NCBI GenBank assembly: GCA_030280995.1
Contig: JASXTE010000015.1
Span: 17,994,001 to 18,058,000 of the forward strand
Source of the DNA: Hemileia vastatrix
Lineage: Eukaryota > Basidiomycota > Pucciniomycetes > Pucciniales > Zaghouaniaceae
DNA length: 64,000 nucleotides
Direction of reading: 5' to 3'
Made by a program: the position numbers and the translations under genes. Under the pieces are notes generated by a model. It saw nothing but the letters and a program-made list of their open reading frames with translations, searched no databases and was not told where the DNA came from. Each line of letters opens with the position of its first letter. The stretch's first letter is position 1. This document shows, piece by piece, positions 36,816 to 58,669 of this stretch.

Positions 36816-37906
36816 TGTAGACAATCCTATAGTACTAGCTATAGGCCTTGACCAAGGGAGTTGGAGTAAAACCAGAAGAAAAACCCCTGTCCCTTTAGAA
36901 AAATAGAGTGAGATTTACCTGTTACAGTAAATTGGTTCCTGTTACCACAAAAGCCCTTTTCCAAACACACTTGACTGCTTGATCAGTCAAGAAAGTAGTC
37001 TCCAGACAGACTACCACACCAAGAACTGAAATTTAGACTAATGTCCACACCAGAGAAAGCAATGATACTTGATGTAGGTTGAAAATCCACACCAGAGACA
37101 GCAATGATACTTGCTATAGCTTGCAAGACTATAACAGAGAAAAAAGTTTCTAAGTTAAGTTAAATGAAGAACTCACTTGCAACAAAACACAGCAAAGTAG
37201 TGGCCAACAACAGTGATAACTGAGTGAGGAAAAAGGATATCACCGCCAGATAGTTGAATGATAATTAAGGTTGCCCCAAAACTCCCTTAATCACTATATA
37301 CACCCAGACTACAAATCAAGAGCCCATGCACACCTGAAAATCCGGCGTTCCTGACCACCAAATTGCATAAAACCTCCCTAGAAGCGCTTCCAGCCCTTGA
37401 GCATTGAGGCAGGTGGTCTGCCTGGTGCTGGGAAGCCCGCCTGAGGTGGCCTGACCACCCTGAAGCCAGAAAACCACCAAAAACACTCAAACTACTTAGA
37501 AAATATACCTACAACTACTAAAACCCTTAAAACACATAATTACACTACAAAAACATTGTGACATGAAATAAAGAGAAAATTCCGCTCTTTCCAATGGTAC
37601 TAAGCACTTAACCCTAAGACTTAAGGTTAGCCCATAAAACACAAAAAATAAGATTCAACAGCAATCTTTTAAAGATGAATAGTAAGAATTTATCCCCCAA
37701 ATACTTATGCTATGAGAAATGTCCTCAAGACATAAAATAAAGAGAAAAAACAGGGCTATCCAATGGTAGCCTCCAGATCCCCTTAGTACCAATATTTGCT
37801 GCGTAATTCCAGAAAAATAACCAATTATTTGAGCAATGCCATTTAAGGCATACCAAAATACTACCAAATAAACCAACAAAGGGCTCCGCCAATGTTGGAA
37901 GACCAC
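36816..37906 (-). repeat. 3' LTR of element G
   Basis: 1091 bp; plus strand runs TGTAGACAATCC...GGAAGACCACA. An internal GC-rich patch (about 37375-37460) stands out in AT-rich sequence. It matches the G 5' LTR closely and H LTRs more distantly. Confidence 0.9.
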
Positions 37907-37917
37907 ATCCTCCCTCC
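37907..37917 (-). other. polypurine tract of element G
   Basis: Minus strand GGAGGGAGGA directly precedes TGTGGTCTTCC of the 3' LTR. Element H has GGAGAGAGGA at the same place (57567-57576). Confidence 0.7.
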
Positions 37918-37925
37918 AATAGAGA

Positions 37926-38574
37926 ATGTCCACATTCTCCTATACAACAACCACCATGTTCAGCTTTCTTTCTAAATCTGCTACTGACATGGGCCCCTGT
38001 CAATACTGCATTGACAATAACATCATCTGCTCCATCTCACCACCAGCTCATCCCTACAGAACCTCCTGTGATGCCTGCCACTCTAGAAAAAAGACTTGCT
38101 TCAGACCTGGTCCATTGTGTTCTGCAACTTCTTCACCTTCTACCAGTGCTAAAAGATCCAGGCCTACTACTCTGATCCCCAGACTGGTCCACAAATTAAA
38201 CCCTCCAAAAAAGAGTGTTTACACTACTACTACCACTACTTCTACCATCCCTGGTCCATCTGATGGTAAACACAAAATTTCATCATACTGAACTCCAATC
38301 TGACCAAATTCCAGTTCATTTTCCTCTTGACAGCAATGATGACAATGTGGGAACCATTGAAACACCTCTGCCTAACCCATTGCCCACCATTAAGGAAAAC
38401 TTTAAACAACATTCTTCTCAACAGAAGCATCTCCTATCAGACTATTTCCAATCTACTCCTGCTAAGAACCCACAGGATCTTGAGAAAAGGATGAACCTCA
38501 TACACCAATTCAAAGCCAATGCTGAACATTTTGCCACATATCTTGATTCTCTTCTGCCTCCTACTCTTTATTAA
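37926..38574 (+). CDS. antisense gene alpha of G: permuted Zn2Cys6-like protein
   Basis: Exons 37926-38265 and 38315-38574 give 199 aa; the 49-nt GT-AG intron has branch-like ACTGAAC. The ATG lies 19 bp inside from the LTR, antisense to pol. Cysteines 25, 28, 35, 48, 51 and 58 follow CX2CX6CX12CX2CX6C, the Gal4-type binuclear cluster count, but the basic residues (CDACHSRKKTC) are in the second half instead of the first, and a seventh Cys is at 65. A Thr/Ser/Pro-rich linker with a KRSRP basic patch follows. The C-terminal part is helix-prone (QHSSQQKHLLSDYFQ, KRMNLIHQFKANAEHF). Element H has the same intron phase and an exon 2 of identical length (260 nt), so the gene model is well supported. 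I infer a nuclear DNA-binding protein, perhaps acting on the element's own LTR; this is not shown. Confidence 0.78.
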
Positions 38575-38649
38575 TCTCTTGACTTAGAAATGAAACTATT
38601 CTTGACCTCTCCAGACTTCCTGAATGTAGCCAATAATCATAAAAAAAAT

Positions 38650-39085
38650 TCCACAGTTTATAGTATTGGGGGACTAATCCTCAGTTTTAAGTCTTGGGGG
38701 ACTAACAGCCATTTTATAGTCTTGGGGGACTCAAAAACCTCAGTTTATAGTCTTGGGGGACTCAAAACCTAAATCAAAAAGACAGAACCAGAGATCAAAA
38801 CATTTAAGACCCAAAGAAACAACTAACATTCTGGGGTAACTGTTATACAGAGCAGCCAGCTCATCAGTTACCCCCACACTTGCCTTAACAAAATTCAGAG
38901 ACTCCCCCTTGGATGCGCTCTTCCAGAATCACACCAACTTCCTTTTTCAGTTTATATTCCTGAAAGACTCAAACATTAAACCATCCTCAGTTTATAGTCT
39001 TGGGGGACTATACCAGTGTTCAGTTTAAAGTCTTGACAGACTGACTGAATTTTTCAGTATAAAGTCTTGAAGGACTGATGCATAA
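38650..39085 (+). repeat. array of a 22-nt AGTCTTGGGGGACT repeat (G)
   Basis: About eight imperfect copies of CAGTTTATAGTCTTGGGGGACT, at about 38655-38765 and 38985-39075. Each copy contains a short inverted repeat AGTC...GACT. Element H has about nine copies at the equivalent place (56310-56830). It lies between antisense genes alpha and beta. Confidence 0.8.
38833..38874. repeat. GGGGTAACTG / CAGTTACCCC hairpin (G, copy 1)
   Basis: 10-bp perfect inverted repeat with a 22-nt loop containing AGAGCAGCCAGCTCAT. A second G copy is at 42233-42274 and two in H at 54423-54463 and 54684-54725, with the loop also conserved. Confidence 0.75.
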
Positions 39086-39220
39086 CAAGGGTGTCTCCGC
39101 CTCCTTGCACAATGCACTGCTGCCAAACTTCTGAATTTCCACTCTTCTACACCATCTACACATAACTGGTAAATATGTTAATTTATCCCTTTTCTTCCCA
39201 CTATCTCTCCTTCACAAGTC

Positions 39221-40698
39221 ATGGCTGGATCACCTTATTTAAACCCATTGGACCTTCCCTGCTTCACAGCTCCAAAAGACTATGTTTGCAAACAGTGCAT
39301 CCACATATGCAGACCTTGCACTTTCACTCTTCCTACTCTTCAGGCCAAACTCTATAACAGGGCCTTTGATTCTTGCAACTCCAAAAAGAAAAGGTGTGAC
39401 AGAGATAACAACTACCCAATACCTCCACCTTCACCTTCACATAAATATATATCCAGATCACCTACCAGGTCACCAGAGTATCGGCCTGCTTCTTCCTCCT
39501 TGTCTTCTGCTCCTTCCAGAAGTTCACAACGCTCTACTCCCAAACCCTAGCCCAAAAGACCAGCTTTATCATCCCAAGAATATGCTTTCCTTTCTGCAAC
39601 TTCATCAAAAATGGCACCAAAATCAGCTCCTAGGCTACTAGACCGTGTCCAGGTGGCCCGCCCGCCTCATCAGAACACAAAAATCAGGCTCAAAACATCC
39701 AAATTCAGCCAAAAAACAACCAAATTCTTCCATCCAACACCAATAACTTAACACCACAACCTCCTAATGCTCCCAGAGCAATGCGTACCTCCGTCATTTC
39801 TTCTTCTATTAACACCAGAACAGCCAACACTGCTTCTAAACACAAAACTCCTGTTTCTCCAGGAGAAATCAAGTTCACCTCTCCTCTGGCTGCCAATTAT
39901 TCTTATGAATCTACATCCAGCAGATCCCAATCAGCCGCCAGATCATTATCTCCTGGTCCTACCCTCAATCAAACTGGCACTCCTCCACCAGCATCTAGTA
40001 AACCTCCACCAAGCAATAATATAAACACTAACAACAACCACAGCCCTGCTGCTGCAACCAGAGCCCAGGAACCTCTTTCTTCACCTTCATCTTCTCAACA
40101 CCATTCAAAGAATTACCCAGAAAATCCATACCTCCATCTGGTGGACCCTCCTACAATACATATTCAATACTCTTCAGCCATCCATATTCCCGCTGCATAC
40201 AAATTTGAAGATCTCCCAATCTGTAAGTACCAAAATAAAATACCAAAATATAATTTCTTCAACAGATGAAAAATTCCTGAACCAATTCTTCTGATTTTAG
40301 TTGGAACCCCACTGCCTGCAACTGCATTTGGAACTGGCCAACCCCTAGAAACTACCTTGACGCTGGATTACACTGATATGAAGCAACACCTTAGCATGAT
40401 GTGTTCAAACATGCTTAAAGCCTTTTCTCTTCATGGTCTATTGAATAATTTTGAGAAGAATCTAAGAAAACAACTCCTTGATGACCACTGGAAGATGTCA
40501 AAAATTATCAAGCACACTTTCCAGAACTGCATTCCTACTTTTATTTATTCCAACCCAGTTCCAGACCATTATAACCCCTATACTTTCTCCATCCGCCTGC
40601 ACCACAAGGAAAACAGTTCTTCCTCTAATCCAAGCAAGAAACAAAAACGCCACAACCATCTGGACCAACCGCCAGAGGACTCTTCATCCCATCATTAA
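39221..40698 (+). pseudogene. antisense gene beta of G: Cys-rich protein, at least two introns or breaks
   Basis: Begins MAGSPYLNPLDLPCFTAPKD. Cysteines 23, 26, 30, 33 (CKQCIHICRPC) and 52, 59 (CNSKKKRC) form a second possible zinc site next to a basic run. A stop at 39548-39550 and a frame change before about 39640 interrupt a Ser/Pro/Asn-rich middle; this may be an unrecognised intron or real damage. A clear intron (40223-40300, GTAAGT...TTTTAG) joins PAAYKFEDLPI to a conserved C-terminal domain (LTLDYTDMKQHLSMMCSNML, RKQLLDDHWKMSKIIKH) ending at 40698. Element H repeats the N-terminus, this intron and the C-terminal domain, so the gene is real to the family. The function is unknown. Confidence 0.6.
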
Positions 40699-40765
40699 AT
40701 AAAAGAATTTAAACAAAATTACCAACTAGAAAATAATAACAGCTAACAGATATATAAAAAAAAAT

Positions 40766-41540
40766 TATTTTATTTTTATTTTTATTTTTATTTTTATTTT
40801 TATTTTTATTTTTATTTTTATTTTTATTTTTATTTTTATTTTTATTTTTATTTTTATTTTTATTTTTATTTTTATTTTTATTTTTATTTTTATTTTTATT
40901 TTTATTTTTATTTTTATTTTTATTTTTATTTTTATTTTTATTTTTATTTTTATTTTTATTTTTATTTTTATTTTTATTTTTATTTTTATTTTTATTTTTA
41001 TTTTTATTTTTATTTTTATTTTTATTTTTATTTTTATTTTTATTTTTATTTTTATTTTTATTTTTATTTTTATTTTTATTTTTATTTTTATTTTTATTTT
41101 TATTTTTATTTTTATTTTTATTTTTATTTTTATTTTTATTTTTATTTTTATTTTTATTTTTATTTTTATTTTTATTTTTATTTTTATTTTTATTTTTATT
41201 TTTATTTTTATTTTTATTTTTATTTTTATTTTTATTTTTATTTTTATTTTTATTTTTATTTTTATTTTTATTTTTATTTTTATTTTTATTTTTATTTTTA
41301 TTTTTATTTTTATTTTTATTTTTATTTTTATTTTTATTTTTATTTTTATTTTTATTTTTATTTTTATTTTTATTTTTATTTTTATTTTTATTTTTATTTT
41401 TATTTTTATTTTTATTTTTATTTTTATTTTTATTTTTATTTTTATTTTTATTTTTATTTTTATTTTTATTTTTATTTTTATTTTTATTTTTATTTTTATT
41501 TTTATTTTTATTTTTATTTTTATTTTTATTTTTATTTTTA
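40766..41540. repeat. (ATTTTT)n microsatellite, about 775 bp
   Basis: Uninterrupted hexamer TTTTTA repeated about 129 times. It lies between antisense gene beta and the 3' end of pol. The equivalent part of H (55375-55470) has only a short, impure TTTTATTTCATTTATT tract, so the expansion is specific to G or this locus. Confidence 0.97.
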
Positions 41541-42246
41541 ACTACTAACTACTAACATACTTAAAATTTGAAAATGAAATTATGATTAAATATACAAAAT
41601 AATATGACATGAATTATTATTACAAATGGTATCCCCCAGCCCATTGATGAGCTGTTCCACTGATATCTTACCCACATCCAAGTGCACCTTGATGTGGATA
41701 CACAATTAAATATTTTTAAATGATTAATGATAAAAAAAATTAGAAATTAAAAGAAAATAATAAAAAAATGAAATGCAGAAATAAATGAAAAAGAAAATAA
41801 TAAAAAGAAAAATAGCATTGCCCGGCCAATTGATGAGCCTTTTCCCACCAATGCTTGCCCACATCCAGGTTACCCTGATGTGGTAACACCATAATTTTTG
41901 TGATTTTCCTCTTTACATCCTAATAAACCCCATAAAAAATTAAAAGAAAAAATGAGAAAAAAAGAAAATAATCTAAAACTACTATCTAACACAACCATAA
42001 ACACAGCAATCAGATGAAAAGAAAAGTAAAAGTCCAATCCAATGAAATGATCACTGGGTGGGCTCCCTTCAATAAGTAAAAATAATGGGAGACCACCAGT
42101 GATCCACCGCCACTCCAAAGAAACAAAGAAGCCACTCCAAGGCCAGTTTGAAGTCATGGTGGACTAAAACCTGAATAACAAAACCAGAACTAGGATTCAA
42201 CTAGGACAAACAAAATACTTGAAACAGAAATTATGGGGTAACTGTT
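41541..42246. other. non-coding 3' region of G with a duplicated segment
   Basis: Two related segments at about 41630-41702 and 41820-41890 share TTGATGAGC, CCCACATCCA and a CACATCCA...TGATGTGG inverted repeat. The H counterpart is at 55085-55345. No coding frame was recognised. A GGTAACTG...CAGTTACC hairpin lies at its end (42236-42274). Confidence 0.6.
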
Positions 42247-42991
42247 CTACAGAGCAGCCAGCTCATCAGTTACCACCACATTTTCCAAAATAAAATCAAG
42301 AAGCCCCACCCATGGGTACCCTCTAACAAAAATTTTCAACAAACAGATGCACAGCATCACCACAAAAAAATCCAAAATTAAAGTACCTGCCCTCTTTAAT
42401 ATGGACAGCATCCAGACTGACTCTTCCAAACACAGTTGATTCACCAGTAGCACGGCCAACCTCTTTAGGTTTCAAGTGACTTCTTCTTTGACATTCTTCA
42501 CAAGAATGAACCCAACCCTGCACAGCCAACTTCATACCTGGCCACTAAAATCTGTCTTCTACTCTTCTGTAAGTCTCCCCAAAGCCTCTATGACCAAGGT
42601 CTTCATGGAAAGACTTCAGCACCAACTCTTGACCCTTCTTCTGAGTTACCACAACTTGAGGATTTGGATGCCTCCTCCTCATCAACCTTCTTCCTGACAC
42701 ATAGAACCCAGGACTTTTCTTCTTGATTGCCAACAAAGTATTATCATCAAAAATATCTGGCCTCTCTAAGGTCAACAGATATTCAACCATAATAAAATAA
42801 AACCCAGTCTGACCCCAGGTCTCATCTTCAAAATCCAACAAAACAACATCCAAGGGTACAACCCTATCATCAAAATCCCCAGTGTACACATGAGCAACAT
42901 GACTGGCCCATCCGGGAAACCAATCTCTAAACTTTGATAAATCTTTACCCTTCCACTGAATCCTATGAGAATCCAGTTCACTGATAAACAC
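42247..42991 (-). pseudogene. integrase remnant of element G
   Basis: Zinc region: FHEDLGHRGFGETYRR followed, after a frame break, by VHSCEECQRRSH (HHCC). The core starts with LDAVHIKEGRYFNF but is then lost; the following VRGYPWVGLLDFI reads into the hairpin region. The second catalytic Asp and the Glu were not found, so this integrase is inactive. Confidence 0.75.
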
Positions 42992-43626
42992 ACCATTCTC
43001 CAGATTTGAGCCATCACAAACAACAGCCCCATCTTTATCAACAAAAACATCCTGACACCAGAATCAAGATCAGAAATATCCAGTTTAGCCTCATGGGGGA
43101 GGAGAGAAAAATCTTCAGAACCCTTTGTTCTGGCTCTAACAAGTGGAGCATCTTCATCAAACTCTTCAGGATCAGAATCTTCATCTGTGGGCGGTCTTCT
43201 TGACAATACATCTGGCATTGTAAAAGGTTTACCTGGTTTGTGCACCAGGTCAAAAGAAAAATGTTGAATAAACGCCACCCACCTAGTCATTGGAGCATTT
43301 GGATGACTAGGTATGTTGATCATTTAAACCAAAGATTTAGCATCTACCTGCAGCTCAAAATGCTGTCCCCACAAAACAGTTTGTAGCTTTTTTAAGATCT
43401 TTGCTACACTGCACAATTCCAACTTTCTCTGAAAATACCTAGATTCCACCTCATTAAAAACCACAGACTCATACCTTACTGGCCTGACCTTCCCAGTTTT
43501 ATCTTCCTGAGGCAAAACAGCACCAGCAGAAATATAACTTGAGTCCACTGCCAGATAAATTTTTCTAGCCTCTCTACCATAATCCAACTTGTGAAGAATA
43601 TTATCTTCACCCACCACCTTCTTCAA
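42992..43626 (-). pseudogene. RNase H and connection domain of element G
   Basis: IYLAVDSSYISAGAVLPQED is the RNase H N-terminal motif (D-S-S). It continues with YESVVFNEVESRYFQRKLEL and a stop at 43324, then in the same frame WVAFIQHFSFDLVHKPGK and MPDVLSRRPPTDED, the typical end of gypsy RNase H ('rW...f.y.i.hrpG..n.vaDaLSR'). Stops and a later frame break indicate decay. Confidence 0.8.
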
Positions 43627-43919
43627 CTTCTGAAAAGACTCGTCACACTCTTCAGTCCATTCCCACTCTGCATCTTTCCTGGTAAACCTCCTAAAAGGTT
43701 AAGCCAACAAAGAAAAATCTTTAATAAAAATCCTGACATACACACAAACTCCCAAAAATCCTCCAACTTCAGTAGTATTTTTAGCCTTGGCCATGACTCA
43801 ATTTTATTAACCTTCTTCTTTGCAACAATCCTCTCTTCCTTACATACCACATGACCAAGAATTTCCAGAGCTGGAACACAACACCAAAACTTTGACCCTG
43901 AAATGGTCAAAACTGCCTC

Positions 43920-44525
43920 TTAGATTCTAAACAATACTCTCTCTAGAGTAATTGCATATTTCCAAACAAATCTCCTTATACCTGGGTTCTCTTTCAGCAC
44001 TTCATCTCCATAATCAGTGGAGGGTCCTTTAATTCCAACGTCATCAATAAAAATACCATCATGAGTAGGTACCTCATCCTGTAAAATCCAAGCCATTTGT
44101 GCTTGATAAACTGCTACTGAATTAGTTGCTTCTTGAGGCAACCTAGTGAGCTGAAATCTTCCCAGAGGAGTCTCAAATGTTGTGAGTGGCTGGGAATCAG
44201 TGTGAAGTTCCCTTTCATCATAACCAGCCATAATATCACCCAAGCCATAACACACCCTTCCAGCAAAGGCTTCCACACTGTCTTCTGCACTTGGCAGCAT
44301 ACCCGCATTCTTGATAGTAACTCTATTCAGGGCTATAAGATCATGAACCGCCGTGAGTTTTCCATTCTGCTTTTTAACACAGAACACCGGACTTGAGTAA
44401 CTAGAATTTGATTGTTCATACAGTCCAGTCCTGACTCTTTCTCTAATAATCTCAACAAATTCATCAAATATAGCAGCAGGAATTGGAATAGGTTTGATTT
44501 GCCAAGTTTCATGACCAAACCACAA
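43920..44525 (-). pseudogene. reverse transcriptase of element G
   Basis: SSPVFCVKKQNGKLTAVHDL, then LNRVTIKNAGMLPS, GLGDIMAGYDERELHTDSQP, TPLGRFQLTRLPQEATNSVA and a FIDDVGIKGP active site (Y-x-D-D variant). This is the 'K.NGKLR.VHDLQ' lineage of fungal gypsy elements and is quite different from E. The frame breaks at the C-terminal end; thumb remnants continue at 43623-43910. Confidence 0.85.
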
Positions 44526-44724
44526 GAATCAAGTAAGTTTCCCCATAAGAGTGCCTGAACAAACCCCTTTTCTCATCAACAAAAGCCACCGCCTTCTCCC
44601 TTAGCACAATAACCTGAAACAACAACTTCTTTTCCTCTTCAGACAACCATCCATCAGGACCAAGGTTAAAAACCTTCAACCTTTCCACTGTCACCCTAGC
44701 AGTTTCCTCAAAATCAGGAGGATT

Positions 44725-45588
44725 CTACACTAAAGGAGTACAGTAAGGATCTCTTGACAACGGAGGTCTCTTCAGGGGAGGATTCAATCCTACAGGCATA
44801 GGCTCATTGACAGGCCTAATCTTCTGCGCCACCTTCTTATACTTTGCTGCTCTACCGTCAACTTGAGGGATCTTCAGGATGTCTTCTTCACTAGATCTGG
44901 AACAAAAATCAAGGGTTTCCCCATTGCTCACAGGTGTGGCCAAGGTAATGTTTTTGAAAGGCATAGAAGAAACCCTAGCGTTGCACATTTGGGAGGACTT
45001 ACTTTTACTCCCAAATCTCACCACTCCAAAAATTTTCCGTAATCCCACATCTTCATCTTCTCTTCCATCTACCAAGTCTTCAAATCTTGATTCATCTTCA
45101 GAATCACTTATTCTACCGCTGTGCAGTTTATCCTCATGCAGTAGGCCCAAAACAAGATCTTGCTGATCTTCACAAAAATATTTTGAATCTTCTTTCTTCA
45201 TTATCTTCAGATTTTTTTCTTTATTTTCTTTAATTATCTTGAAATTTTAATTTTATTTTCTTGGGTTTTCTTCTTGCCTACAAAAATAAACAGGGGTTTC
45301 CCCAATGCTCACAGACGTGGCCAAGGTAATGTTTTTAAAAGGTGTAGAAGAAACCCTTGTGGTGCACAATTGGGAGGACTTACTTTTAGACCCCAATCTC
45401 ACCACTCCAAAACTTTTCCGTATATCTTTCAATAAAGATACATAACCAGTCTTCCCTTTTGAACTTGAGTTAAAAATAATTGAGAAACTTGAGAGAGAAA
45501 GGAGACTTGATAAAAAACATGAAGAATACTTGCAAATAAGAGAGTCATTAAAAAGAGAAAGTTGAAAATCCACCTGGTATATCTCCAT
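44725..45588 (-). pseudogene. linker region of G with a tandemly duplicated domain
   Basis: Two copies of a domain with the order FGVVR.GSKSKSSQ, ARVSSMPFKNITLATPVS and GET lie at about 45280-45430 and 44890-45060. H has a single copy (about 53935-54085). After the second copy, AAKYKKVAQKIRPVNEPMPV and PLSRDPYCTPLV lead towards RT. The middle has acidic, Asp/Glu-rich sequence. The function of the domain is not recognised. Confidence 0.6.
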
Positions 45589-45699
45589 GGAGCTGACCTA
45601 CTACAACCTGAAATTTCCTCACCTTGGGGAGAGGTTGTAGCACTTGGGTGATCAGCCCTCATCATTCTAAAAAAGACAGACTCTCTCTAGAGCCTGCGC

Positions 45700-46437
45700 C
45701 ACACTCCAAAAACCCTGAGGTGGCACCTACTTCCTTTCTCCTCCTACAACAATCCATGCATTGACACATGGAAGACAAGCCAGGCCTAGTTTCCAACTAT
45801 CATCTCCAAGAGATGATAGTCTCATGTAAAGCCTTCTTTCATCTTCACCAGTTAACTCCAGACTATTCTCCATGTCAAACTGATAGCCAACTCTTTCCTG
45901 GAAATCCATCAAGAATGGCCCTCCTAAAACTGCTTTTACATTACCCTTAGTAATGTAAAAATGAGCCTTTCAGGAGGCTCAACCAACATCCAACTTAGCA
46001 AAATCAGAGGTACCCATCAACTCCGTTACGTGACCACCTACACCTCTTAAATTCCCACCAATTCCACTTTTGATGGGGAGGCCCAAATGAGTGGCCTCAA
46101 ACAAAGAAATCAGGTTAATTTTTGAACCTGAATCCACTAATGCCCTAGCCTCCCTGCCATTCAGGGTGACATTGACATACCCTAGAGGTGCATAAAAATG
46201 TGTTTCCAATTCCTCTCCGAAATTCTCCGCAGAATCACATATGTATTCCACTTCCCCAGAAGAAACCCTTCTCCTGGTCAACAACTTTTTCTGCCTATCA
46301 TCCAACCCAGGACTGATAGCATATAACTCTCCATAAGTGAGAGAAACCTGACCCTGATTCATCCTATCTAGAACAGAGTCCATAACATTTGATTGGCCAG
46401 AGACTAGTGGCCTCTCAAAGTGAGCCCTTGGCTTCAC
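45700..46437 (-). pseudogene. aspartic protease region of element G
   Basis: Contains RRRVSSGEVEYICDSAENFG, VNVTLNGREARALVDSGSKI (D-S-G-S catalytic motif) and GVGGHVTELMGTSDFAKLDV. A stop at 45979 is followed in another frame by a bridge matching H's FLMDFQARIGYQFDLG. It is equivalent to the protease of H and F. Confidence 0.8.
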
Positions 46438-46479
46438 TACCTTGGTCCTAGAATTTTCCTAAAGACCAGCACCACCAAC

Positions 46480-48069
46480 AGATTTCCCATCTACAGGAAT
46501 CAAACCAGATCCCTCACCAGAACCTCTGACCCCAGCGGACCTTGGCAATGAAGCCAATGGGAACTCCCCCTCAGAGTCAGAGTCCACATCCATAGGCATT
46601 GGCTCACCACTAAGGTCCAATGCTCCAAAACTAGGGGGCCCATATTTGCAATACCCTTCTGCATTTTATACAGCTCCTCTTTGCTGTACTTCTTCCTAGC
46701 TGCACCCAGCTTAGGATCTGCCTTTGATGCCTTAGGCTTTTGAGGGGCCTGAGAACTGCTCTTAGGCCTTCCTACCTTTCCTGCCTCTACGTTATATACA
46801 CCAGCCTAGCACTCACCACTGGACTGTCCTCCGCAAGAATACAACTCAAATCCACCAAAGGAAGTAGAAATGAAGCTTTGTTCACTTCCTTCCCTTTTCC
46901 CTTGCACTCTTCATCTTGCTTAGTAGAGGAATTCCCCTGATCAGGAATCTCCCCAAATTATGGTCTCCACTGATTGAGAACAGTCCTCCTCCTGACCATG
47001 TCCACAGGAGCTTGCCCCTCACTGGGCTTGACAAACTGACCATCAGGGAACTTGAATACCCTGCAAACAAATTCTACTTTGCCCTATGACACATCTCTGT
47101 TCAGAGCCCAGCAATAATTGGAATTATGTCCTCTCCTTCCACAATAAGAGCAAAACAAAGGGTCACTCCTACCAGCCCGCCTATCAAATTCCCTGGGCTT
47201 CAGAGGCACCTTATTTTCCTTCTTTTCCTCCTGCACAAAAATATGGAGCTGTTTGGTCAGATCAGCCAACTTCTCCACCACTGGATCCTGCTCCTGTTTG
47301 AAAGCCTTTACCATATTCCTCTCTTCTTTCTCCACCTTACTTTCCTCTTCAGCCAAAGCCTTACTGACTTTGCTGACATACTTGGCGCACCCTTCTTGAT
47401 AGTGTCCACTGCTGATAATTTCAGATGGGCCTCCACCGCCTCCTTCACCTTGTCCAAGGCAGGCAACTTTTGATCCCCATCGGAGAGAGTCTTCATCAAG
47501 TCTTTCCTTGATAACTCTTTTAGCACATCCATCCTGAAATCCCTAGCCAGAGTGGACCAAAAAACATCTTTGGCAGGATTCTCATGTGCCAGCTCCTCCA
47601 CTTCCACAAAGTATTCCACCACAGGATCAAACTGTAGCAGAAACTTCTTGTAACTGTGTAAGTTACCAACACCACCATAAGATTGCCACTCACTGAAAAC
47701 ATTATTCAGATCCACAATAGTGAACCTGATGCCTCATCTATCAATAATTTCCCTACACAATAACCTCCAATCTCTCTTCTTGTAGGTAGGAATGGCCACA
47801 ACCTCCTTCTCCACCGCCCTATCTCAAATGAAAAAGATGACTTGCTTCAACATATCCAGGTGAAAAGCACTGTCAACACCTGCAGGAGTTTCATACTTTT
47901 CTAGAAACCATTTAAAATCATCACCATTAAACTTGGTTCCATCCCAAGATTTAATCCTAACACACTCCCTAGCCATCACCGCAGGCGGACCTTCCCCCCC
48001 ACTGGCAGTCACCATGGGAATAGAAGATCCAGAAGCCATCCTTCCAGACAAAAATACCAAAAGAGCCAA
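46480..48069 (-). pseudogene. gag of element G with zinc knuckle
   Basis: Starts MASGSSIPMVTASGGEGPPA (ATG within the frame beginning 48069), then CVRIKSWDGTKFNGDDFKWF. A stop at 47824 and a frame change near 47360 break it. Further parts are WQSYGGVGNLHSYKKFLLQF, DVLKELSRKDLMKTLSDGDQ and the knuckle FCSYCGRRGHNSNYCWALN (CX2CX4HX4C, about 47110-47155). To about 46480 low-similarity linker matches H. It is non-functional. Confidence 0.85.
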
Positions 48070-48110
48070 TCACAGTCAACAATGAATCCAAAGAACTAAC
48101 AGATCCGTAA

Positions 48111-48127
48111 CCCCACGTTGGGCACCA
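48111..48127 (-). other. primer binding site of element G
   Basis: On the minus strand TGGTGCCCAACGTGGGG follows the 5' LTR after a TTTC spacer. Element H has TGGCGCCCAACGTGGGG in the same position. Confidence 0.8.
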
Positions 48128-48131
48128 GAAA

Positions 48132-49221
48132 TGTAGACAATCCTATAGTACTAGCTATAGGCCTTGAACAAGGGAGTTGGAGTAAAACCAGAAGAAAAAC
48201 CCCTGTCCCTTTAGAAAAACAAGTGAGATTTACCTGCTACAGTAAATTGGTTCTTGTTTACTAAAAAGCCCTTTTCCAAACACACTTGACTGCTTGATCA
48301 GTCAAGAAAGTAGTCTCCAGACAGACTGCCACACCAAGAACTGAAATTCAGACTAATTTCCACACCAGAGAAAGCAATGATACTTGATGTAGGTTGCAAA
48401 TCCACACCAGAGACAGCAATGATACTTGCTATAGCTTGCAAGACAATAACAGAGAAAACAGTTGCTAAGTTTAGTTAAATGAAGAACTCACTTGCAACAA
48501 AACACAGCCAAATAGTGTCCAACAACAGTGAAAACTGAGTGAGGAACAAGGATATCATTGCCAGATGGTTGAATGATAATTAAGGTTGCCCCAAAACTCC
48601 CTTAATCACTATATACACCCAGACTACTAATCAAGAGCCCATGCACACCTGCAAATCCGGCGTTCCTGACCACCAAATTGCATAACACCTCCCTAAAAGC
48701 GCTTCCAGCCCTCTAGCATTGAGGCGGGCGGTCCGCCCGGCACTGGGAAGCCCACCTGAGGTGGCCTGACCACCCTGAAGCCAGAAAACACCAAAAACAC
48801 CCAAACTACTTAGAAAATTCACCTACAACTACTAAAACCCTTAAAACACATAAATACACTACAACAACATTGAGACATGAAATATAGAGAAAATTCCGCT
48901 CTTTCCAATTGTACTAAGCACTTAACCCTAGGACTTAAGGTTAGCCCATAAAACACAAAAAACGAAATTCAACAGCAATCTTTTAAAGATGAAAAGTGAG
49001 AAATTATCCCCCAAATACTTATGCTATGAAAAATGTCCACAAGACATAAGATATAGAGGAAAACCACGGCTATCCAATGGTAGACATCAGATCCCTGTAG
49101 TCCCAATATTTGCTGCATAATTCCAGAAAAATAACCAATTATTTGAACAATGCCATTTAAGGCATACCAAAATACCACCAAATAAACCAATAAAGGGCTC
49201 TGCCAATGTTGGAAGACCACA
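48132..49221 (-). repeat. 5' LTR of element G
   Basis: 1090 bp, close to the left copy. Contains GGGCGGTCCGCCC at 48726-48738, a perfect 6-bp inverted repeat carrying CGG/CCG triplets inside an otherwise AT-rich LTR. Confidence 0.9.
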
Positions 49222-50133
49222 GCGGTAGAGCCTGATGTTGAAGATTAGGAAAAAAATTGTCTTCATAACAACAAAAAATTGGTTAGGAAGAAGAACTGGG
49301 ATTATAGGTATCCAGGGTAAGAGGAAATGAAAATGACTGTGGAAGCAGAAATGAAGTTTCTTTGGGCAGAGTGCTGAGCAGCTAGGGTCTCTTTAGAGGA
49401 TGTAGAGGTAATAGAGGTTTTTCCTAGTACTGGATCACCTTCCTCAGTCTCAACTCCAAAATAAAATAAAACATGAGAGGATTCAAACTCAGTGATGGAA
49501 AGAATTGAAGATTTGGAGAAGAAGTCGAGTGAAGAGGCTAAACCCAAGTCTAGATTTACTCCTCAACCATTGTGATTTTCTTCAATGGTATGTTATTATT
49601 GTAATAAAGAAGTTCATATGCAGATGATTTGTAATGCACTTCAAAAAGATAAAGAAGACAAGGTAGTCTTTGAGGATGAGAAAGCTTTTTTAATGTTAGA
49701 GAACGGAATGAAGCTTGTTTTGGATGAGGATCTAGGGATGTGAGCCAAGGTCATTTATCATATTAATTAGAAATTTATGGAGGTCAAGTCTAGTAAGGGC
49801 AAGGATCCTAAAGATAAGAACTCAAAATCAGTAAAGTTTTCAGTCACTTGTGCAGTAATGGATTTCAAGGTCAAAAAGAGGGTGGTTTCAATGCCACTCA
49901 CTGTAGCACGGTTGGAGATGTTTGCAGCCAAACATAAGAAAATGGCTCCACCAACTATTAGTAGACCTAGAAGGGCTGGCCCCAAGTATGCAAATCCAGA
50001 AGAAATTGAGGAGGTAGGGTACACTATGAGAGAGAATATTCCAGTACCACCTGAGGATGTGGAAATGGAAGATGAATCTGCAAACAAAATGATAATGATA
50101 TGGATCAGCATATTGAAGAACAACTGTTAGCAG
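49222..50133 (+). pseudogene. gag fragment with zinc knuckle, part 2 of element F
   Basis: It resumes F after gypsy G: RIEDLEKKSSEEAKPKSRFT, then the knuckle CYYCNKEVHMQMIC (49591-49632, CX2CX4HX4C without Gly), then an acidic stretch. The clean frame from 49777 includes PPTISRPRRAGPKYANPEE and a short acidic VPPEDVEMEDES, the F counterpart of H's GEPIPMEVDSDSEED. It is cut at 50133 by gypsy H. Confidence 0.7.
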
Positions 50134-51226
50134 TGTGGTCTTCCAACATTGGCAGGGGCCTTTGCTGTGTGATTTGGCGTTGTTTGGGCATGTCTTAATT
50201 GACATCTGTTAAGGAATTGGGTATTTTTCTGGTTTTATTCGGTGGATATTGGGTCTGCGGGTATGTGGGTACTATCATTGGATAGCCCTGGTTTTTCTCT
50301 ATATTTTATGTCATGTAGACATTTTTCATATTCTGAGTTTTAAGGGGTCATTTCCTCATTTTTCATTTATAAAAGATTGCTGTTTAATTTTAGTTTTGGT
50401 GTTTTACGGGCTAACCTTAAGTCTTAGGGTTAAGTGCTTAGTACCATTGGATAGAGCTAATTTTTCTCTATATTTCATTTCTCAATGTTGTTATAGCTAA
50501 ATTCCGTGTTTTAAAGGTTTTAGTAGTTGTAGCTAATTTTTCTAAGTAGATTAGTGGTTTTTGTTGGTTTTCTGGCTTCAGGGAGGCCGGGCCGCTTCAG
50601 GCGGCATCTCCGATGTCAGGCGGCCCTTCCGCCTCTGTTTTAGGAGGTTGGGGAGCGCTTCGGGAGGGTTTTTAATGCAATTTGGCAGGTACAGGCACCA
50701 GATTGGTGGGTGCGCATGGGCTCTTAGTTAGTGGTCTGTGTGTACATAGTGAATAAGACAGTTTGGGGCAACCTTAATCATCATACAACCATCCAGAGGT
50801 GATCTCATTGTTCCTCACTCAGTTTTCACTGTTTTCTGGCCACAATTGGCTGTGTTTGTTGCAAGTCAGTTCTTCATTTAACTTAACTTTGGCAACTGTT
50901 TTCTCTGTTATAGTCTTGAAAGCTATAGCAAGTATTATTTCTGTCTCTGGTGTGGATTTGCAGCCTACATCAAGTATCTTTGCTGTCTCTGGTGTGGACT
51001 TTGTTCTACATTTCAGTTCTTTGGTCTGGTAGTCTATCTGGGGACTACTTTCTTGGCTCATCAAGCAGTCAAGTGTGTTGAAAAGGAGCTTTAGCAAAAC
51101 AGGAACCAACTTACTTTAGCAAGTAAATCTCACTCTATTTTTCTAAAGGGACAGGGGATTTTCTCTCTGGTTTTTCTCCAACTCCCTTGGTCAAGGCCTA
51201 TAGCTAGTACTATAGGATTGTCTACA
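50134..51226 (+). repeat. 5' LTR of element H
   Basis: 1093 bp from TGTGGTCTTCCAACATTGGC to GGATTGTCTACA. A GC-rich patch with several CCG/CGG triplets lies at 50581-50634. It is homologous to the LTRs of G in reverse orientation. Confidence 0.92.
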
Positions 51227-51230
51227 TTTC

Positions 51231-51247
51231 TGGCGCCCAACGTGGGG
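51231..51247 (+). other. primer binding site of element H
   Basis: TGGCGCCCAACGTGGGG, four bases after the LTR end. This is the classical position and form of a retroviral-type primer site complementary to a tRNA 3' end; the tRNA species was not determined. Confidence 0.8.
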
Positions 51248-51319
51248 TTAGAACTTGCTAGTTCTTTGGAATCTCTGTTTTCTTTGGTTGGCTCTTTTTG
51301 GTGTTTTTGGACTGGAGGA

Positions 51320-54422: not shown

Positions 54423-54725
54423 GGGGTAACTGATAAGCTGGCTGCTCTATCAACAGTTACCCCAGATTATCTGTTTTCAACCCTTTCTCTTAATTTGGTT
54501 GAACCCCAGTATTGGTTTCTTTTCACAGGTTTCAGTCCTCTATGACTTTAAACTGGAATTTACTCTGGTTTTCAAGTGCTGGACTCTTCACTGTTTATTG
54601 GTTTTGGTTTTTTTGTGTTGGACGTTGTGTTTTTGTTAGAAGGTACCCAGGGGGGGCTTCTAGAATTTATTTTGGCAAGTGTGGGGGTAACTGATGAGCT
54701 GGCTGCTTTGTAGAACAGTTACCCC
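54423..54725. repeat. two GGGGTAACTG hairpins in a tandem unit (H)
   Basis: Hairpins at 54423-54463 and 54684-54725 have 10-bp arms and a loop with AGCTGGCTGCT. Each is preceded by GTTAGAAGGTACCCA, so a unit of about 260 bp is tandemly repeated. A degenerate third copy is at about 56634-56677. Confidence 0.75.
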
Positions 54726-55079
54726 AGAATGTCTGTTTCAAGTCTTTGTTTTTCCTAGTGGAATTCTAGTTCTGTTGTTTATTATTCAGGTTTCAAGTCA
54801 ACTATGACTTTAAAATGGTTTGGGACTGGCTTCTTTATCTTTGGTTCTTTTAGATTGGTGGTGGATCACTGGTGGTCTCCCATCATTTTTACTTATTGGA
54901 GGGAGCCCACCCAGTGATCATTTCTATGGATCGGACTTTCCCTTATTGGACCATCTATGGAGCTGGACTGTCTTTGATTTTGCAGTTATGTTTTTGCTAG
55001 ATAGAAGTTTTAGATTATTTTATTTTTTCTCTTTTTTTCTTTTAATTTTTATGGGGGTTGTTTAAAATTATAAAATCAA

Positions 55080-55345: not shown

Positions 55346-55547
55346 TTGGCTGGGGGATACCATTTGTATTATTTTTTATATTTTATTTTATTTCATTTAT
55401 TTTATTTTATTTCATTTTATTTATAAATTTTCAATTTTAATATATTAGTCGTTAAAAAAAAAAAAAAAAATTCTGAAATTATTTTTATTAATTGTTTTAT
55501 ATTATTATTATGTTTCTAATATTTTTGCAGGAGCTCATTGTCTGGAT

Positions 55548-56173
55548 GATGAAGCTTCTGGAGGCTGGTCCGGATTGTGATGACATTTTTGTTTTTTGTT
55601 GGGATTGTGGGTAGCACTGTGTTCTTGGAAGTGCATCCTGCTGGAGAGATGATAGGGATTGTAATGATCAGGAATTGGATTAGAGGGTAGTTCAGAGGAG
55701 GAAGAAGAAGAGGCAGGAATGGAGTGCAGGAGGATGTGCTTAATGATCCTAGACATTTTCCAGTGGTCGTCCAGTAGGCGCTTTCTCAGGGATTTTTCAA
55801 AGTCATTCAAAGGCTTTTAGCATGTTGGAACACATGGTGCTTAGGTGTTTCTTCATGTATCCATAATCCAGGGTCAAAGAAGTTTCAAGAGGTTGGCCAA
55901 CTCCAATAATAGATTCAGGAGGAGGGGTGCCAACTAGACAAGAAGAATTGGATCAGTAATTATTTTTGTTGAAGAAATGGGATAATTAATTTGGTACTTA
56001 CAGATTGGAAGCTCATCAAATCTGTAAGCAGCTGGGATTTGGATCTCTGACAATTTTGTAATGGTCATAGTGGGTGGATCAACTAACATGTGGATGCATT
56101 TTTTGCAGGCATAGTCCTTGGGAGCAGTGAAGCAAGGGATAGTAGAAGGGTTAACATCAGGAGATCCAGCCAT
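55548..56173 (-). pseudogene. antisense gene beta of H, internally deleted
   Basis: Starts MAGSPDVNPSTIPCFTAPKD with CKKCIHM, then jumps to VDPPTMTITKLSEI and IPAAYRFDELPI: the Ser/Pro-rich middle seen in G is deleted. The intron 55934-56001 (GTAAGT...CTAG, 68 nt) matches the G intron in position and phase. Exon 2 gives LTLDYGYMKKHLSTMCSNML; a small deletion then shifts the frame, and the conserved tail (RKRLLDDHWKMSRIIKH) continues in another frame. It supports the gene model of beta but is itself broken. Confidence 0.6.
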
Positions 56174-56309: not shown

Positions 56310-56830
56310 ATGCAAAATTCTGTCAGTCTATTAAGACTCTAAACTGAAAAATCTATGGTATCAAGATCAGTCCATCAAGACTTTAAACTGAAATCTGGTT
56401 TCTGTTAGTCCTCCAACACTTTAAACTGGCTGGTTTCAAGATTTTGTCAAGAAGTAGTCCGTCAAGACTTTAAACTGAACACTGTGTTAGTCCCCCAAGA
56501 CTTTAAACTGAACACTGTGTTAGTCCCCCAAGACTATAAACTGAGGAATGGGTTTTGTTGTTGGAGTTGGTTTTGAATATTGGGGGAGGGTATCCACAGG
56601 GGGAGCCTCTGAATTTAGCAAAGGCAAGTTTGGGGGTAATTTATGGGCTGGAAGCTCTTTTCACAATTACCCCAGAATGTTAGTTTTTTTTCTCTGTGTC
56701 TTAATGTGGTTGATCTCTGGTTCTGGGTTTATGATTTAGGTTTTGATTCCCCCAAGACTTTAAACTGAGAGTTTTTGAGTCCCTCAAGACTATAAAATGA
56801 GGATGGTCCCCCAAGACTTAAAAATGAGGG
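56310..56830 (-). repeat. array of the 22-nt AGTC...GACT repeat (H)
   Basis: About nine imperfect copies of AGTCCCCCAAGACTTTAAACTG (reverse of the G unit). The spacing is irregular, with best copies at 56486-56543. It is located between antisense genes alpha and beta as in G. Confidence 0.8.
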
Positions 56831-56887
56831 TTGTTTGTTGTTACATCCTATAGAGGGTGTGGTCAATTTTTCTTTTCTGAATCAAAC

Positions 56888-57558
56888 TCAAGTACTAGTG
56901 GAATTACAGAGGGAATCAAGAGATAAAATGAAGTGTTCAGAATTAGCCTTGAACTGGTGAATGAGGCGTCTTCTGTTCTCAATGTCCTGTGGATCTCTAG
57001 CAGGAGTGGATTGGAAGTAGTGAAGAAGAAGTTGTTTCTGTTGAGATGTGTGTTGTTGGAACTTGGCCTTGATAGTGGGCAAGTGCATTGGTGTTGGTGG
57101 TGCAATGGATCCTACATTGCTATCATCACTATCAGAAGATGGAGGAACTGAGAAGTTATCAGTTTTATAGTTGAAGGAAGAAATGAATGTTCTTTACCAT
57201 CAGATGGACCAGGGATGGTGGAACTAGTTGTTTTATGGGTTGTGGCACTCTTCTGGGAAGGGTGGAGCTTTTTGATTAATCTGGGTATCAGGATGGATGG
57301 CCTAGATCTTTTGGTGCTGGCAGAAGAAGGACCAGGTTGAGGTGGAGGTGAATCTGTTGTGGAAGAAAGTGGACCAGGTCTGTGGCAGGTCTTCTTTCTA
57401 GATTGGCAGACATCGCAGGACGTTCTGTATGAATGGACAGGTGGTGTCATGGTGCCGATTAAATTATTGTTGATGCAGTATTGGCAGGGACCCATTTCAG
57501 AGGCAGAATTGGGAAGTAGGTTAAACATGGTGGTTGGATGAAGAAATAATGTGGACAT
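56888..57558 (-). CDS. antisense gene alpha of H: zinc-cluster-like protein
   Basis: Exons 57558-57198 and 57147-56888 give 206 aa. The 50-nt intron (GTAAAG...CTCAG) lies at the same codon and phase as in G, and exon 2 is also 260 nt. Cysteines 25, 28, 48, 51 and 58 are kept, but the third one (C35 in G) is Gly35, so a full six-Cys cluster cannot form. The basic half reads CDVCQSRKKTC; a KRSRP patch and the helical tail (QHTSQQKQLLLHYFQ, LIHQFKANSEHF) are conserved. The ATG is 19 bp from the 3' LTR. An open frame in a pol-less element suggests the gene was kept longer than pol. Confidence 0.75.
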
Positions 57559-57576: not shown

Positions 57577-58669
57577 TGTGGTCTTCCAACATTGGCAGGG
57601 GCCTTTGTTGTGTGATTTGGCTTTGTTTGTGCATGTCTTAATTGACATCTGTTAAGGAATTGGGTATTTTTCTGGTTTTATTCCATGGATATTGTGTCTG
57701 CGGGTATGTGGGTACTGTCATTGGATAGCCCTGGTTTTTCTTTATATTTTATTTCTTGTAGAAATTTTTCATATTCTGAGTTTTAAGGGGTCATTTCCTC
57801 ATTTTTCATTTATAAAAGATTGCTGTTTAATTTTGTTTTTTGTGTTTTACGGGCTAACCTTAAGTCTTAGGGTTAAGTGCTTAGTACCATTGGATAGAGC
57901 TAATTTTTCTCTATATTTCATGTCCCAATGTTGTTATAGTGAAATTCTGTGTTTTAAAGGTTTTAGTAGTTGTAGCTAATTTTTCTAAGTAGATTAGTGG
58001 TTTTTGTTGGTTTTCTGGCTTCAGGGAGGCCGGGCCGCTTCAGGCGGCATCTCCAATGTCGGGCCGCCCGCCTGCCTCTCTTATAGGAGGTTGGGGAGCA
58101 CTTCAGGAGGGTTTTTTATGCAATTTGGCGGGTACAGGCGCTAGATTGGTGGGTGCGCATGGGCTCTTAGTTAGTGGTCTGTGTGTACATAGTGAATAAG
58201 ACAGTTTGGGGCAACCTTAATCATCATACAACCATCCGGAGGTGATCTCATTGTTCCTCACTCAGTTTTTACTGTTTTCTGGCCACAATTGGCTGTGTTT
58301 GTTGCAAGTGAGTTCTTTATTTAACTTAACTTTGGCAAATGTTTTCTCTGTTATAGTCTTGCAAGCTATAGCAAGTATTATTGCTGTCTCTGGTGTTTAT
58401 TTGCAGCCTACATCAAGTATCTTTGATCTCTCTGGTGTGGACTTTGTTCTAAATTTCAGTTCTTTGGTCTGATAGTCTATCTGGGGACTACTTTCTTGGC
58501 TCATCAAGCAGTCAAGTGTGTTGAAAAGGAGCTTTAGCAAAACAGGAACCAACTTACTTTAGAAAGTAAATCTCACTCTATTTTTCTAAAGGGACAGGGG
58601 ATTTTCTCTCTGGTTTTTCTCCAACTCCCTTGGTCAAGGCCTATAGCTAGTACTATAGGATTGTGTACA
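57577..58669 (+). repeat. 3' LTR of element H
   Basis: 1093 bp, the same length as the 5' LTR with scattered substitutions (for example GATTGTGTACA against GATTGTCTACA at the end). Preceded by the purine tract GGAGAGAGGA. Confidence 0.92.

What the first reader, a model, noticed from the sequence alone, without database searches (positions are those of the whole stretch)
37926..38574. Spliced antisense zinc-cluster gene (alpha) carried by a gypsy retrotransposon, conserved in a second copy
Seen: in both G (37926-38574) and H (57558-56888) an antisense gene lies between pol and the 3' LTR, its ATG 19 bp from the LTR, with one GT-AG intron at the same codon and phase and a second exon of exactly 260 nt. 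Six cysteines in G follow CX2CX6CX12CX2CX6C. Known: Gal4-type Zn2Cys6 clusters bind CGG triplets and have the basic residues in the first half; here they are in the second half. Inferred: the element carries its own DNA-binding regulator, expressed from the LTR in reverse. H has lost pol but still has an open alpha frame.
Basis: partly seen in the sequence, partly recalled or inferred. Interest (0 to 1): 0.82.

Follow-up and report, generated by a model that had tools for sequence, protein, structure and literature searches.

The report
Jumping gene's backward zinc-protein gene
A family of virus-like jumping genes in a large, probably fungal genome carries, on its reverse strand, two genes kept by selection that look like DNA-binding zinc proteins with their two halves in swapped order, which suggests that the jumping gene brings its own control proteins.

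Summary
In elements G and H an antisense gene (alpha) lies between pol and the 3' LTR, with one GT-AG intron. A frame-blind pattern search found 320 places in the genome; 93 of the 100 listed have an intron of exactly 49 nt, so exon 2 is in frame only after splicing. Between two sub-families the splice sites diverge 2.4%, the intron middle 58%. Both exons are under purifying selection in the predicted frame (dN/dS 0.23 and 0.24; cysteine region 0.14). Each of six cysteines (CX2CX6CX12CX2CX6C) is kept in 43-50 of 52 copies.

New here: (1) the cluster looks like a Zn2Cys6 domain with its halves in swapped order (scores weak, below Pfam's cut-off); (2) a second antisense gene, beta, has a related cluster and its N-terminal part is also under selection; (3) a 23-bp motif, 3-15 hits in 21 of 22 copies, nearly always in one orientation, most of it between the two genes, with a hairpin at a fixed distance.

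Best reading: element-encoded DNA-binding regulators. Transcription, splicing and DNA binding are inferred, not shown. Plant Retand elements are the closest known architecture.

The parts
36816..49221 (-). Element G, Ty3/gypsy type, about 12.4 kb, sense strand minus; gag-pol in many broken open pieces
   Evidence: LTR pair and internal match to H; open pieces; protease and RNase H above Pfam's cut-off, integrase zinc-binding piece below it, RT piece below it
36816..37907 (-). G 3' LTR (alpha side)
   Evidence: 93.4% identical to 48132-49221 over 1092 aligned nt
48132..49221 (-). G 5' LTR
   Evidence: start-codon counts; dN/dS 0.23 from codon 11 on
37998..38099 (+). alpha zinc cluster in G (Cys25 to Cys58), CX2CX6CX12CX2CX6C, halves swapped relative to Pfam Zn_clus
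   Evidence: resembles the beta cluster
38266..38314 (+). alpha intron in G, 49 nt, GTAAAC...CCAG, branch-like CTGAC 11-15 nt before its end
38315..38574 (+). alpha exon 2 in G, 260 nt with stop
   Evidence: dN/dS 0.24
38653..39076 (+). Array of the 23-bp motif in G (7 hits of up to 4 mismatches), all in one orientation
38833..38874 (.). Hairpin, 10-bp stem GGGGTAACTG/CAGTTACCCC
39221..40698 (+). beta in G, second antisense gene with a related cluster; in several open pieces
   Evidence: dN/dS of its N-terminal part 0.18 between sub-families
42143..42165 (+). Far variant of the motif in G
50134..51226 (+). H 5' LTR
   Evidence: 95.6% identical to 57577-58669
57577..58669 (+). H 3' LTR (alpha side)
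57198..57558 (-). alpha exon 1 in H; third cysteine is Gly; likelier start at 57528
57148..57197 (-). alpha intron in H, 50 nt
56888..57147 (-). alpha exon 2 in H, 260 nt with stop
56325..56827 (-). Motif array in H (9 hits of up to 4 mismatches)
56633..56673 (.). Hairpin in the H array, stem GGGGTAATTG
55538..56173 (-). beta in H, with an internal deletion that removes the second half of the cluster
54534..54818 (-). Two far motif copies of H; their hairpins lie at 54684-54725 and 54423-54463

Best explanation
Alpha is a real protein-coding gene with one intron that these Ty3/gypsy elements carry antisense to gag-pol next to the 3' LTR. It encodes a small protein: an N-terminal binuclear zinc cluster of the Zn2Cys6 type with its two half-motifs in swapped order, a basic Pro/Ser-rich middle, and a C-terminal part rich in Gln, Leu and charged residues. 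With beta, a second antisense gene with a related cluster, it most likely acts in the nucleus as a sequence-specific DNA-binding protein on the element's own DNA. The candidate targets are the 23-bp motif array between alpha and beta and, less surely, the GC-rich block of the LTR. Its job would be to set the level of element transcription or to keep copies from being silenced. Shown by sequence here: the frame, the conserved intron, selection, the cysteine pattern, the swapped halves (weak scores), beta, and the array. Inferred: transcription from the LTR in reverse, splicing of the RNA, zinc and DNA binding, the target, and the effect.
For: Coding: between two sub-families (43 and 9 of the 52 copies) dN/dS is 0.23 for exon 1 from codon 11 (codon bootstrap 0.15-0.35), 0.14 for codons 22-64 (0.07-0.27) and 0.24 for exon 2 (0.12-0.41); the other two forward frames give 1.01-1.76. 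Within the sub-families it is 0.36-0.52. It falls from 0.71 at dS below 0.15 to 0.24 at dS 0.7-1.2, as expected if live elements are selected and dead copies drift. In a second, frame-blind sample of 20 copies it is 0.41 (exon 1) and 0.42 (exon 2) in frame, 0.76-1.14 out of frame.
Intron: of 100 listed places 93 have 49 nt, 5 have 48, 2 have 50. Donor GTAA and acceptor CAG diverge 0.024 between sub-families, the intron middle 0.583, third codon positions 0.359. Exon 2 of the 21 copies with 49 nt alone gives dN/dS 0.36 within and 0.22 against the H class. In the frame-blind sample the whole frame is open in 3 of 20 copies if spliced and in 0 of 20 if not.
Domain: of five cluster pieces scanned apart, the first half of alpha (copy L043) matches Zn_clus positions 17-35 (17.7 bits), the second half of G matches 1-21 (15.0 bits) and the second half of beta (copy L037) matches 1-16 (19.4 bits).
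Beta: its cluster finds alpha in G and H (38% identity, E 0.015 and 0.005 in a search of the window); dN/dS of its N-terminal part between sub-families is 0.18.
Target candidate: 188 motif hits on the alpha strand against 1 on the other in 22 copies; motif columns diverge 0.121 between sub-families, spacer columns 0.281.
Against: No Pfam cut-off is reached (14.6-19.4 bits against 21). H alpha and G beta gave no Zn_clus match, and of the five pieces the second half of L043 alpha and the first half of L037 beta gave none. The reverse search, alpha against beta in the window, is weak (E 0.83). No relative was found in the protein database for alpha, beta or an alpha alignment; the PDB gave nothing for G and two chance-level matches for the alignment (E 0.48 and 0.72). 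The AlphaFold model is poor (mean pLDDT 53). In the first, biased sample 23 of 52 copies are open if spliced and 21 of 52 if read through; among its 21 copies with 49 nt, one (G) is open if spliced and 5 only if read through. In the frame-blind sample the cysteines are only slightly better kept than other residues (0.904 against 0.855). The motif does not occur in the LTR above shuffles (six copies tested). The CGG/CCG-rich LTR block is mostly explained by composition (148 observed, 128 +- 8.1 in dinucleotide shuffles). There is no RNA evidence. One orientation of the motif also fits an RNA signal.
Confidence: 0.55

Rival explanations
1. Alpha and beta are element proteins, but they bind RNA: the motif and hairpin are signals in the sense genomic RNA, and the proteins serve its export, packaging or stability (Rev-like or nucleocapsid-like).
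For: Motif hits are in one orientation (188 to 1). A hairpin with a 10-bp stem lies 88-91 nt after the start of a motif hit in 78 of 89 instances (31 of 39 far, 47 of 50 near) and shows two-sided changes at pair 8.
Against: The cysteine pattern resembles a fungal DNA-binding cluster rather than a CCHC knuckle, and a gag piece has its own knuckle-like stretch (PF14392, 17.6 bits, below cut-off). Tandem growth alone also gives one orientation. Of 890 pair cells of the hairpin 84 are broken and only 15 changed on both sides.
Confidence: 0.2
2. The antisense transcript matters as RNA (double-stranded RNA with the sense transcript, feeding or blocking silencing) and the protein is secondary.
For: Such an effect of antisense transcripts of retrotransposons is discussed in PMC7264820 (passages).
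Against: Selection acts on the amino-acid sequence: dN/dS 0.14-0.24 between sub-families in the one frame.
Confidence: 0.07
3. The intron is an artefact: alpha is one continuous frame, and copies such as G and H are frameshifted.
For: In the first sample 21 of 52 copies had 48 nt and 8 had 51 or 54 nt, lengths that can be read through; 7 of the 9 H-class copies had 51 nt; 21 of 52 copies are open if read through, 5 of them with 49 nt.
Against: That sample was chosen by whole-protein matches without splicing and so favours copies whose frame runs through. The frame-blind search gives 49 nt in 93 of 100, and 0 of 20 copies from it are open if read through. The 48-nt copies lost single bases at several different places. 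The intron middle changes faster than third codon positions while its ends hardly change.
Confidence: 0.05
4. A captured host gene that is now dead cargo.
For: In the frame-blind sample 17 of 20 copies are broken.
Against: dN/dS well below 1 in both exons and in the N-terminal part of beta, lower with distance.
Confidence: 0.04

Closest known systems
Plant Retand lineage of Ty3/gypsy (PMC11963269, passages)
   Same: Long region between pol and 3' LTR with antisense ORFs, predicted to bind DNA (TRP28 domain, 97% of clusters), and tandem repeat arrays in about half of the elements.
   Different: TRP28 there, a swapped zinc cluster here (Pfam listed no TRP28); host here probably fungal (not tested); here a conserved intron, two related genes and a 23-bp motif.
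Plant antisense extra ORFs in general: maize Grande gene23, RIRE2, PvRetro13 (PMC7264820, passages)
   Same: Position and orientation; nuclear location reported for the Grande product.
   Different: No clear similarity to other proteins described for those ORFs, per that review; no zinc cluster mentioned in it (word search).
HTLV antisense gene HBZ (recalled; the antisense promoter in the HTLV 3' LTR is mentioned in PMC7264820)
   Same: Spliced antisense gene at the 3' LTR that makes a nuclear regulator (recalled).
   Different: HBZ is a bZIP protein (recalled); no sequence relation tested or claimed.
VANC proteins of Arabidopsis VANDAL transposons (PMC5735166, passages)
   Same: Element-encoded protein plus short motifs, often in tandem repeats, in the element's non-coding DNA.
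   Different: Arabidopsis VANDAL elements of another kind, another protein; binding and loss of methylation are shown there and only conjectured here.
Fungal Zn2Cys6 transcription factors, Pfam PF00172
   Same: Six cysteines as two CX2CX6C halves; pieces match complementary parts of the profile.
   Different: Order of the halves swapped; scores below the cut-off; here carried by a retrotransposon.
TET/JBP dioxygenase genes in fungal DNA transposons (PMC12730594, search listing only)
   Same: Fungal mobile elements with an accessory gene linked to DNA methylation.
   Different: An enzyme, in DNA transposons.

Membership tests
Zn2Cys6 binuclear cluster (PF00172) | Six cysteines in two CX2CX6C halves with a loop between | tested here: met
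   CX2CX6CX12CX2CX6C; each cysteine kept in 43-50 of 52 copies and in 16-19 of 19 readable copies of the frame-blind sample
Zn2Cys6 binuclear cluster (PF00172) | Basic half first, then the second half | tested here: not met
   First half of alpha matches profile 17-35, second half of G matches 1-21: swapped order
Zn2Cys6 binuclear cluster (PF00172) | Score above Pfam's curated cut-off of 21 bits | tested here: not met
   Alpha: 16.9, 18.3 and 15.3 bits for three copies, nothing for H. Beta: 14.6 bits for two copies, nothing for G
Zn2Cys6 binuclear cluster (PF00172) | Zinc and DNA binding, typically to CGG triplets | not testable with these tools
   An LTR block is rich in CGG/CCG, but mostly by composition
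Antisense additional ORF between pol and 3' LTR | Position and antisense orientation | tested here: met
Antisense additional ORF between pol and 3' LTR | Present in most copies of the family | tested here: inconclusive
   Hundreds of places carry it, but copies were found by alpha itself, so the share of elements without it is unknown
Retand-type elements | TRP28 domain (PF04195) in the antisense ORF | tested here: not met
   Not among the Pfam matches of alpha or beta
Ty3/gypsy LTR retrotransposon | LTR pair, and protease, RT, RNase H, integrase in this order | tested here: met
   LTRs; in G protease PF13650 and RNase H PF17919 above cut-off, integrase zinc-binding PF17921 and RT PF00078 below it, in this order on the minus strand
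Ty3/gypsy LTR retrotransposon | Target-site duplication | tested here: inconclusive
   Read by eye at the ends of G and H: no clear duplication
VANC-like anti-silencing system | Element protein binds repeated motifs of its own element and lifts silencing | not testable with these tools
   Motif array found; binding and effect cannot be tested here

The most novel reading that the evidence does not exclude
A probably fungal LTR retrotransposon family has evolved, in parallel with plant Retand elements and VANDAL transposons, a self-regulation or anti-silencing module: two related antisense genes encode zinc-cluster proteins of a half-swapped Zn2Cys6 architecture that recognise a 23-bp motif multiplied between the two genes, and this module helped the family to spread through a 748-Mb genome.
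Probability: 0.3. Interest if true: 0.85.

Novelty: new variant of a known kind. Interest (0 to 1): 0.62.

Why it matters
Antisense genes next to the 3' LTR are known in plants, with unknown function. Here is one, probably in a fungus, whose product has a recognisable though rearranged DNA-binding architecture, clear purifying selection, a partner gene and a candidate target array in the same element. That makes the old question of what such antisense genes do testable with one protein and one 23-bp motif. The swapped order of the Zn2Cys6 halves would also be a new architecture for a very common fungal transcription-factor domain: I saw none described among the rows listed by my searches of the held papers, which cover open-licence papers only.

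Tried and rejected
Intron as artefact: the first copy sample suggested a continuous frame (48, 51 and 54 nt); a frame-blind pattern search reversed that.

Spliced retrocopies: one copy (L050) lacks 99 nt bounded by GT...AG that end exactly at the alpha acceptor, with another donor upstream. A search for the normal exon junction, up to 1 mismatch, found 0 places; the L050 junction, up to 2 mismatches, occurs once, in L050 itself. Kept as a curiosity, not as evidence.

Motif in the LTR: a short core similar to the motif, found after the fact in a well-kept LTR block (34 of 52 copies), did not survive a weight-matrix test against shuffles in six copies.

CGG sites: an LTR block 415-545 bp from the alpha side is the top CGG/CCG spot of the window (three of the four LTRs of G and H are the top three 120-bp bins; the fourth is decayed), but dinucleotide shuffles of the 52 blocks give nearly as many.

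Sense-strand coding: two of three reverse frames give dN/dS of 1.0 or more, the third 0.40 in both exons, as expected for the frame that shares wobble positions; the alpha frame is lower.

RIP-like decay: at columns where 85% or more of the G class agree, minority letters show C>A nearly as often as C>T in alpha (304 and 332; 384 and 562 in the LTR), so I saw no clear RIP signature.

Rfam: nothing at gathering threshold in 36500-58900. Structure prediction was poor, so no fold search was run. Alpha, beta and an alpha alignment found no relatives in the protein database, which may hold few fungal proteins.

Full report
What is there. The window (64 kb) lies in a 748-Mb genome of 791 contigs. 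Two related Ty3/gypsy elements matter: G (36816-49221, sense strand minus, LTRs 93.4% identical) and H (50134-58669, sense strand plus, LTRs 95.6% identical). Neither has an intact gag-pol: that of G is in many broken pieces; H lacks the counterpart of G 42383-44880, which holds the RT, RNase H and integrase pieces, but keeps gag and protease pieces.

Observation. The gene is not a peculiarity of two copies: the spliced protein gave 183 matches in the genome, from 16,016 first-look candidates of which 150 were scored.

Copies used. First sample: 50 loci (L001-L050) plus G and H, 52 in all. It was picked by whole-protein score without splicing and so favours copies whose frame runs through the intron. 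I sorted it by identity and intron likeness into a G class (43) and an H class (9). Second sample: 20 loci (L051-L070) taken at about every fifth place of the 100 listed by a DNA pattern search, blind to frame; one place already held was swapped for its neighbour, and the list covers only the first contigs in order.

Intron. In the first sample lengths were 49 (21 copies), 48 (21), 51 (7), 50 (1), 54 (1), and one copy without it. Because 48, 51 and 54 can be read through, I first doubted the intron. In that sample 23 of 52 copies are open over the whole frame if spliced and 21 of 52 if read through; of its 21 copies with 49 nt only G is open if spliced, and 5 are open only if read through. A pattern anchored in both exons with a free gap then found 320 places in the genome, 0 for the reversed control; of the 100 listed, 93 have 49 nt, 5 have 48, 2 have 50. 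The pattern requires GTAA and CCAG, so it does not test the splice sites. Between the G and H class the donor GTAA and the acceptor CAG diverge by 0.024, the intron middle by 0.583, codon positions 1, 2 and 3 by 0.214, 0.134 and 0.359. In the frame-blind sample 19 of 20 introns have 49 nt; the frame from codon 11 is open over its whole length in 3 of 20 copies if spliced and in 0 of 20 if not. The length in the H class could not be measured without bias.

Selection. Nei-Gojobori dN/dS between classes is 0.23 for exon 1 from codon 11 (bootstrap over codons 0.15-0.35), 0.14 for codons 22-64 (0.07-0.27) and 0.24 for exon 2 (0.12-0.41). Within classes it is 0.36-0.52. The other forward frames give 1.01-1.76, the reverse frames 1.00-2.19 except the wobble-sharing one at 0.40. 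It falls with distance from 0.71 to 0.24. Within the frame-blind sample it is 0.41 and 0.42 in frame. Exon 2 of the 21 copies with 49 nt alone gives 0.36 within and 0.22 against the H class, so exon 2 was selected in a lineage where splicing is the only way to read it in frame. The pairs share branches, so these are not independent tests.

Start codon. Codon 1 is ATG in 27 of 52 (23 ATT, 2 AAG) and in 8 of 19; codon 11 in 40 of 52 and 18 of 19; codon 22 in 49 of 52 and 16 of 19. I take codon 11 as the likely start, about 49 bp from the LTR edge. A promoter in or at the LTR is then the natural reading, by inference; none was tested.

Domain. Cysteines 25, 28, 35, 48, 51 and 58 are kept in 48, 49, 50, 50, 43 and 49 of 52 copies. 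In the frame-blind sample the six cysteine codons are only slightly better kept than the other exon-1 codons (0.904 against 0.855 majority residue), since drift after insertion weighs heavily there. Pfam's Zn_clus is the best match of three alpha copies but below its cut-off of 21 bits (16.9 for G, 18.3 and 15.3 for two others; nothing for H). Of five pieces scanned apart, the first half of one H-class copy matches profile positions 17-35 (17.7 bits), the second half of G matches 1-21 (15.0 bits), the second half of beta matches 1-16 (19.4 bits), and two (second half of the H-class copy, first half of beta) match nothing. So the halves appear to stand in swapped order. Since the Zn2Cys6 fold is nearly symmetric in its two halves (recalled), such an order could fold alike; the structure model is too poor to say.

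Beta. A second antisense frame starts at 39221 in G (MAGSP...). Its cluster (CX2CX3CX2C, then CX2CX6C with a KKKR stretch in most copies shown) finds alpha in both G and H at 38% identity (E 0.015 and 0.005 in the window); the reverse search gives E 0.83. Its N-terminal part (about 97 codons) in 20 of 22 copies gives dN/dS 0.18 between classes (91 pairs), 0.38 and 0.41 within, and 0.89-1.55 in shifted frames. It continues over about 1.5 kb in several open pieces; introns in it are possible but were not worked out.

Motif and hairpin. Between alpha and beta lies an array of a 23-bp motif. In 22 copies with long flanks (G, H, L031-L050) there are 188 hits (up to 4 mismatches in the 19-letter core) on the alpha strand and 1 on the other; none in about 1.5 kb upstream (which holds the LTR) or in alpha. 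One copy (L044) has none, because other DNA follows alpha there; the rest have 3-15, the far ones included. Variant copies lie about 2-4 kb after alpha (30 hits). Motif columns diverge 0.121 between classes, spacer columns 0.281 (20 copies aligned, 19 used); tandem growth may add to this, and columns were called motif by likeness. A hairpin with a 10-bp stem follows the start of a motif hit at 88-91 nt in 78 of 89 instances; of 890 pair cells 772 are the commonest pair, 19 a one-sided and 15 a two-sided standard change, 84 are broken.

How it most likely works. An antisense transcript starts in or near the 3' LTR, is spliced, and gives alpha; beta is made from the region between (inferred). 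Both proteins bind DNA of their own element (inferred). The array is the best target candidate because it lies between the two genes, is multiplied, and is better kept than its surroundings. The effect could be feedback on element transcription or protection from silencing. The low CpG content of the window (observed/expected 0.22) would fit DNA methylation in this genome, which is inference.

What is known. Plant Retand elements have antisense ORFs with predicted DNA binding and tandem repeats in the same place (PMC11963269, passages). Antisense ORFs of plants are reviewed in PMC7264820 (passages). VANC proteins bind short motifs, often tandem, in their own transposons and cause loss of methylation (PMC5735166, passages). 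A survey of LTR retrotransposons in fungi does not contain 'antisense' or 'zinc' (PMC3248453, word search of the main text), nor does a 2025 paper on rust-fungus transposons (PMC12210899, same). Searches for zinc-cluster or antisense genes of fungal retrotransposons showed none by title or abstract start among the rows listed; the library holds open-licence papers only, and the lists were capped.

Verdict. I rate it a new variant of a known kind.

Noticed in passing
39221-40698 (G); 55538-56173 (H): Second antisense gene, beta, with a cluster related to alpha and a C-terminal part shared by G and H that ends in a basic stretch; possibly several exons.
   Followed up: partly
38653-39076 (G), 56325-56827 (H): Array of a 23-bp motif with a hairpin at a fixed distance; variant copies further on towards the end of pol.
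   Followed up: partly
48641-48760, 50581-50700, 58021-58140: GC- and CpG-rich block inside three of the four LTRs, the top CGG/CCG spots of the window.
   Followed up: yes
L001-L050 with G and H, alpha gene and LTR: Minority letters show C>A nearly as often as C>T in alpha, a high share of transversions for decaying copies; codon 1 is ATT in 23 of 52 copies.
   Followed up: partly
L050 (C67:27652100-27658560): A single copy lacks 99 nt bounded by GT...AG that end exactly at the alpha acceptor.
   Followed up: yes
40768-41540: A (TTTTAT)n array of about 129 units inside G; similar tracts in some other copies.
   Followed up: no
49771-50130 and 58670-59448: Open frames on both sides of H, the right one retroelement-like, suggest that H sits inside another retroelement.
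   Followed up: no
whole genome: 18 contigs reach beyond 24 Mb by the lengths and places; with 748 Mb this would fit a rust fungus (recalled), not tested.
   Followed up: no
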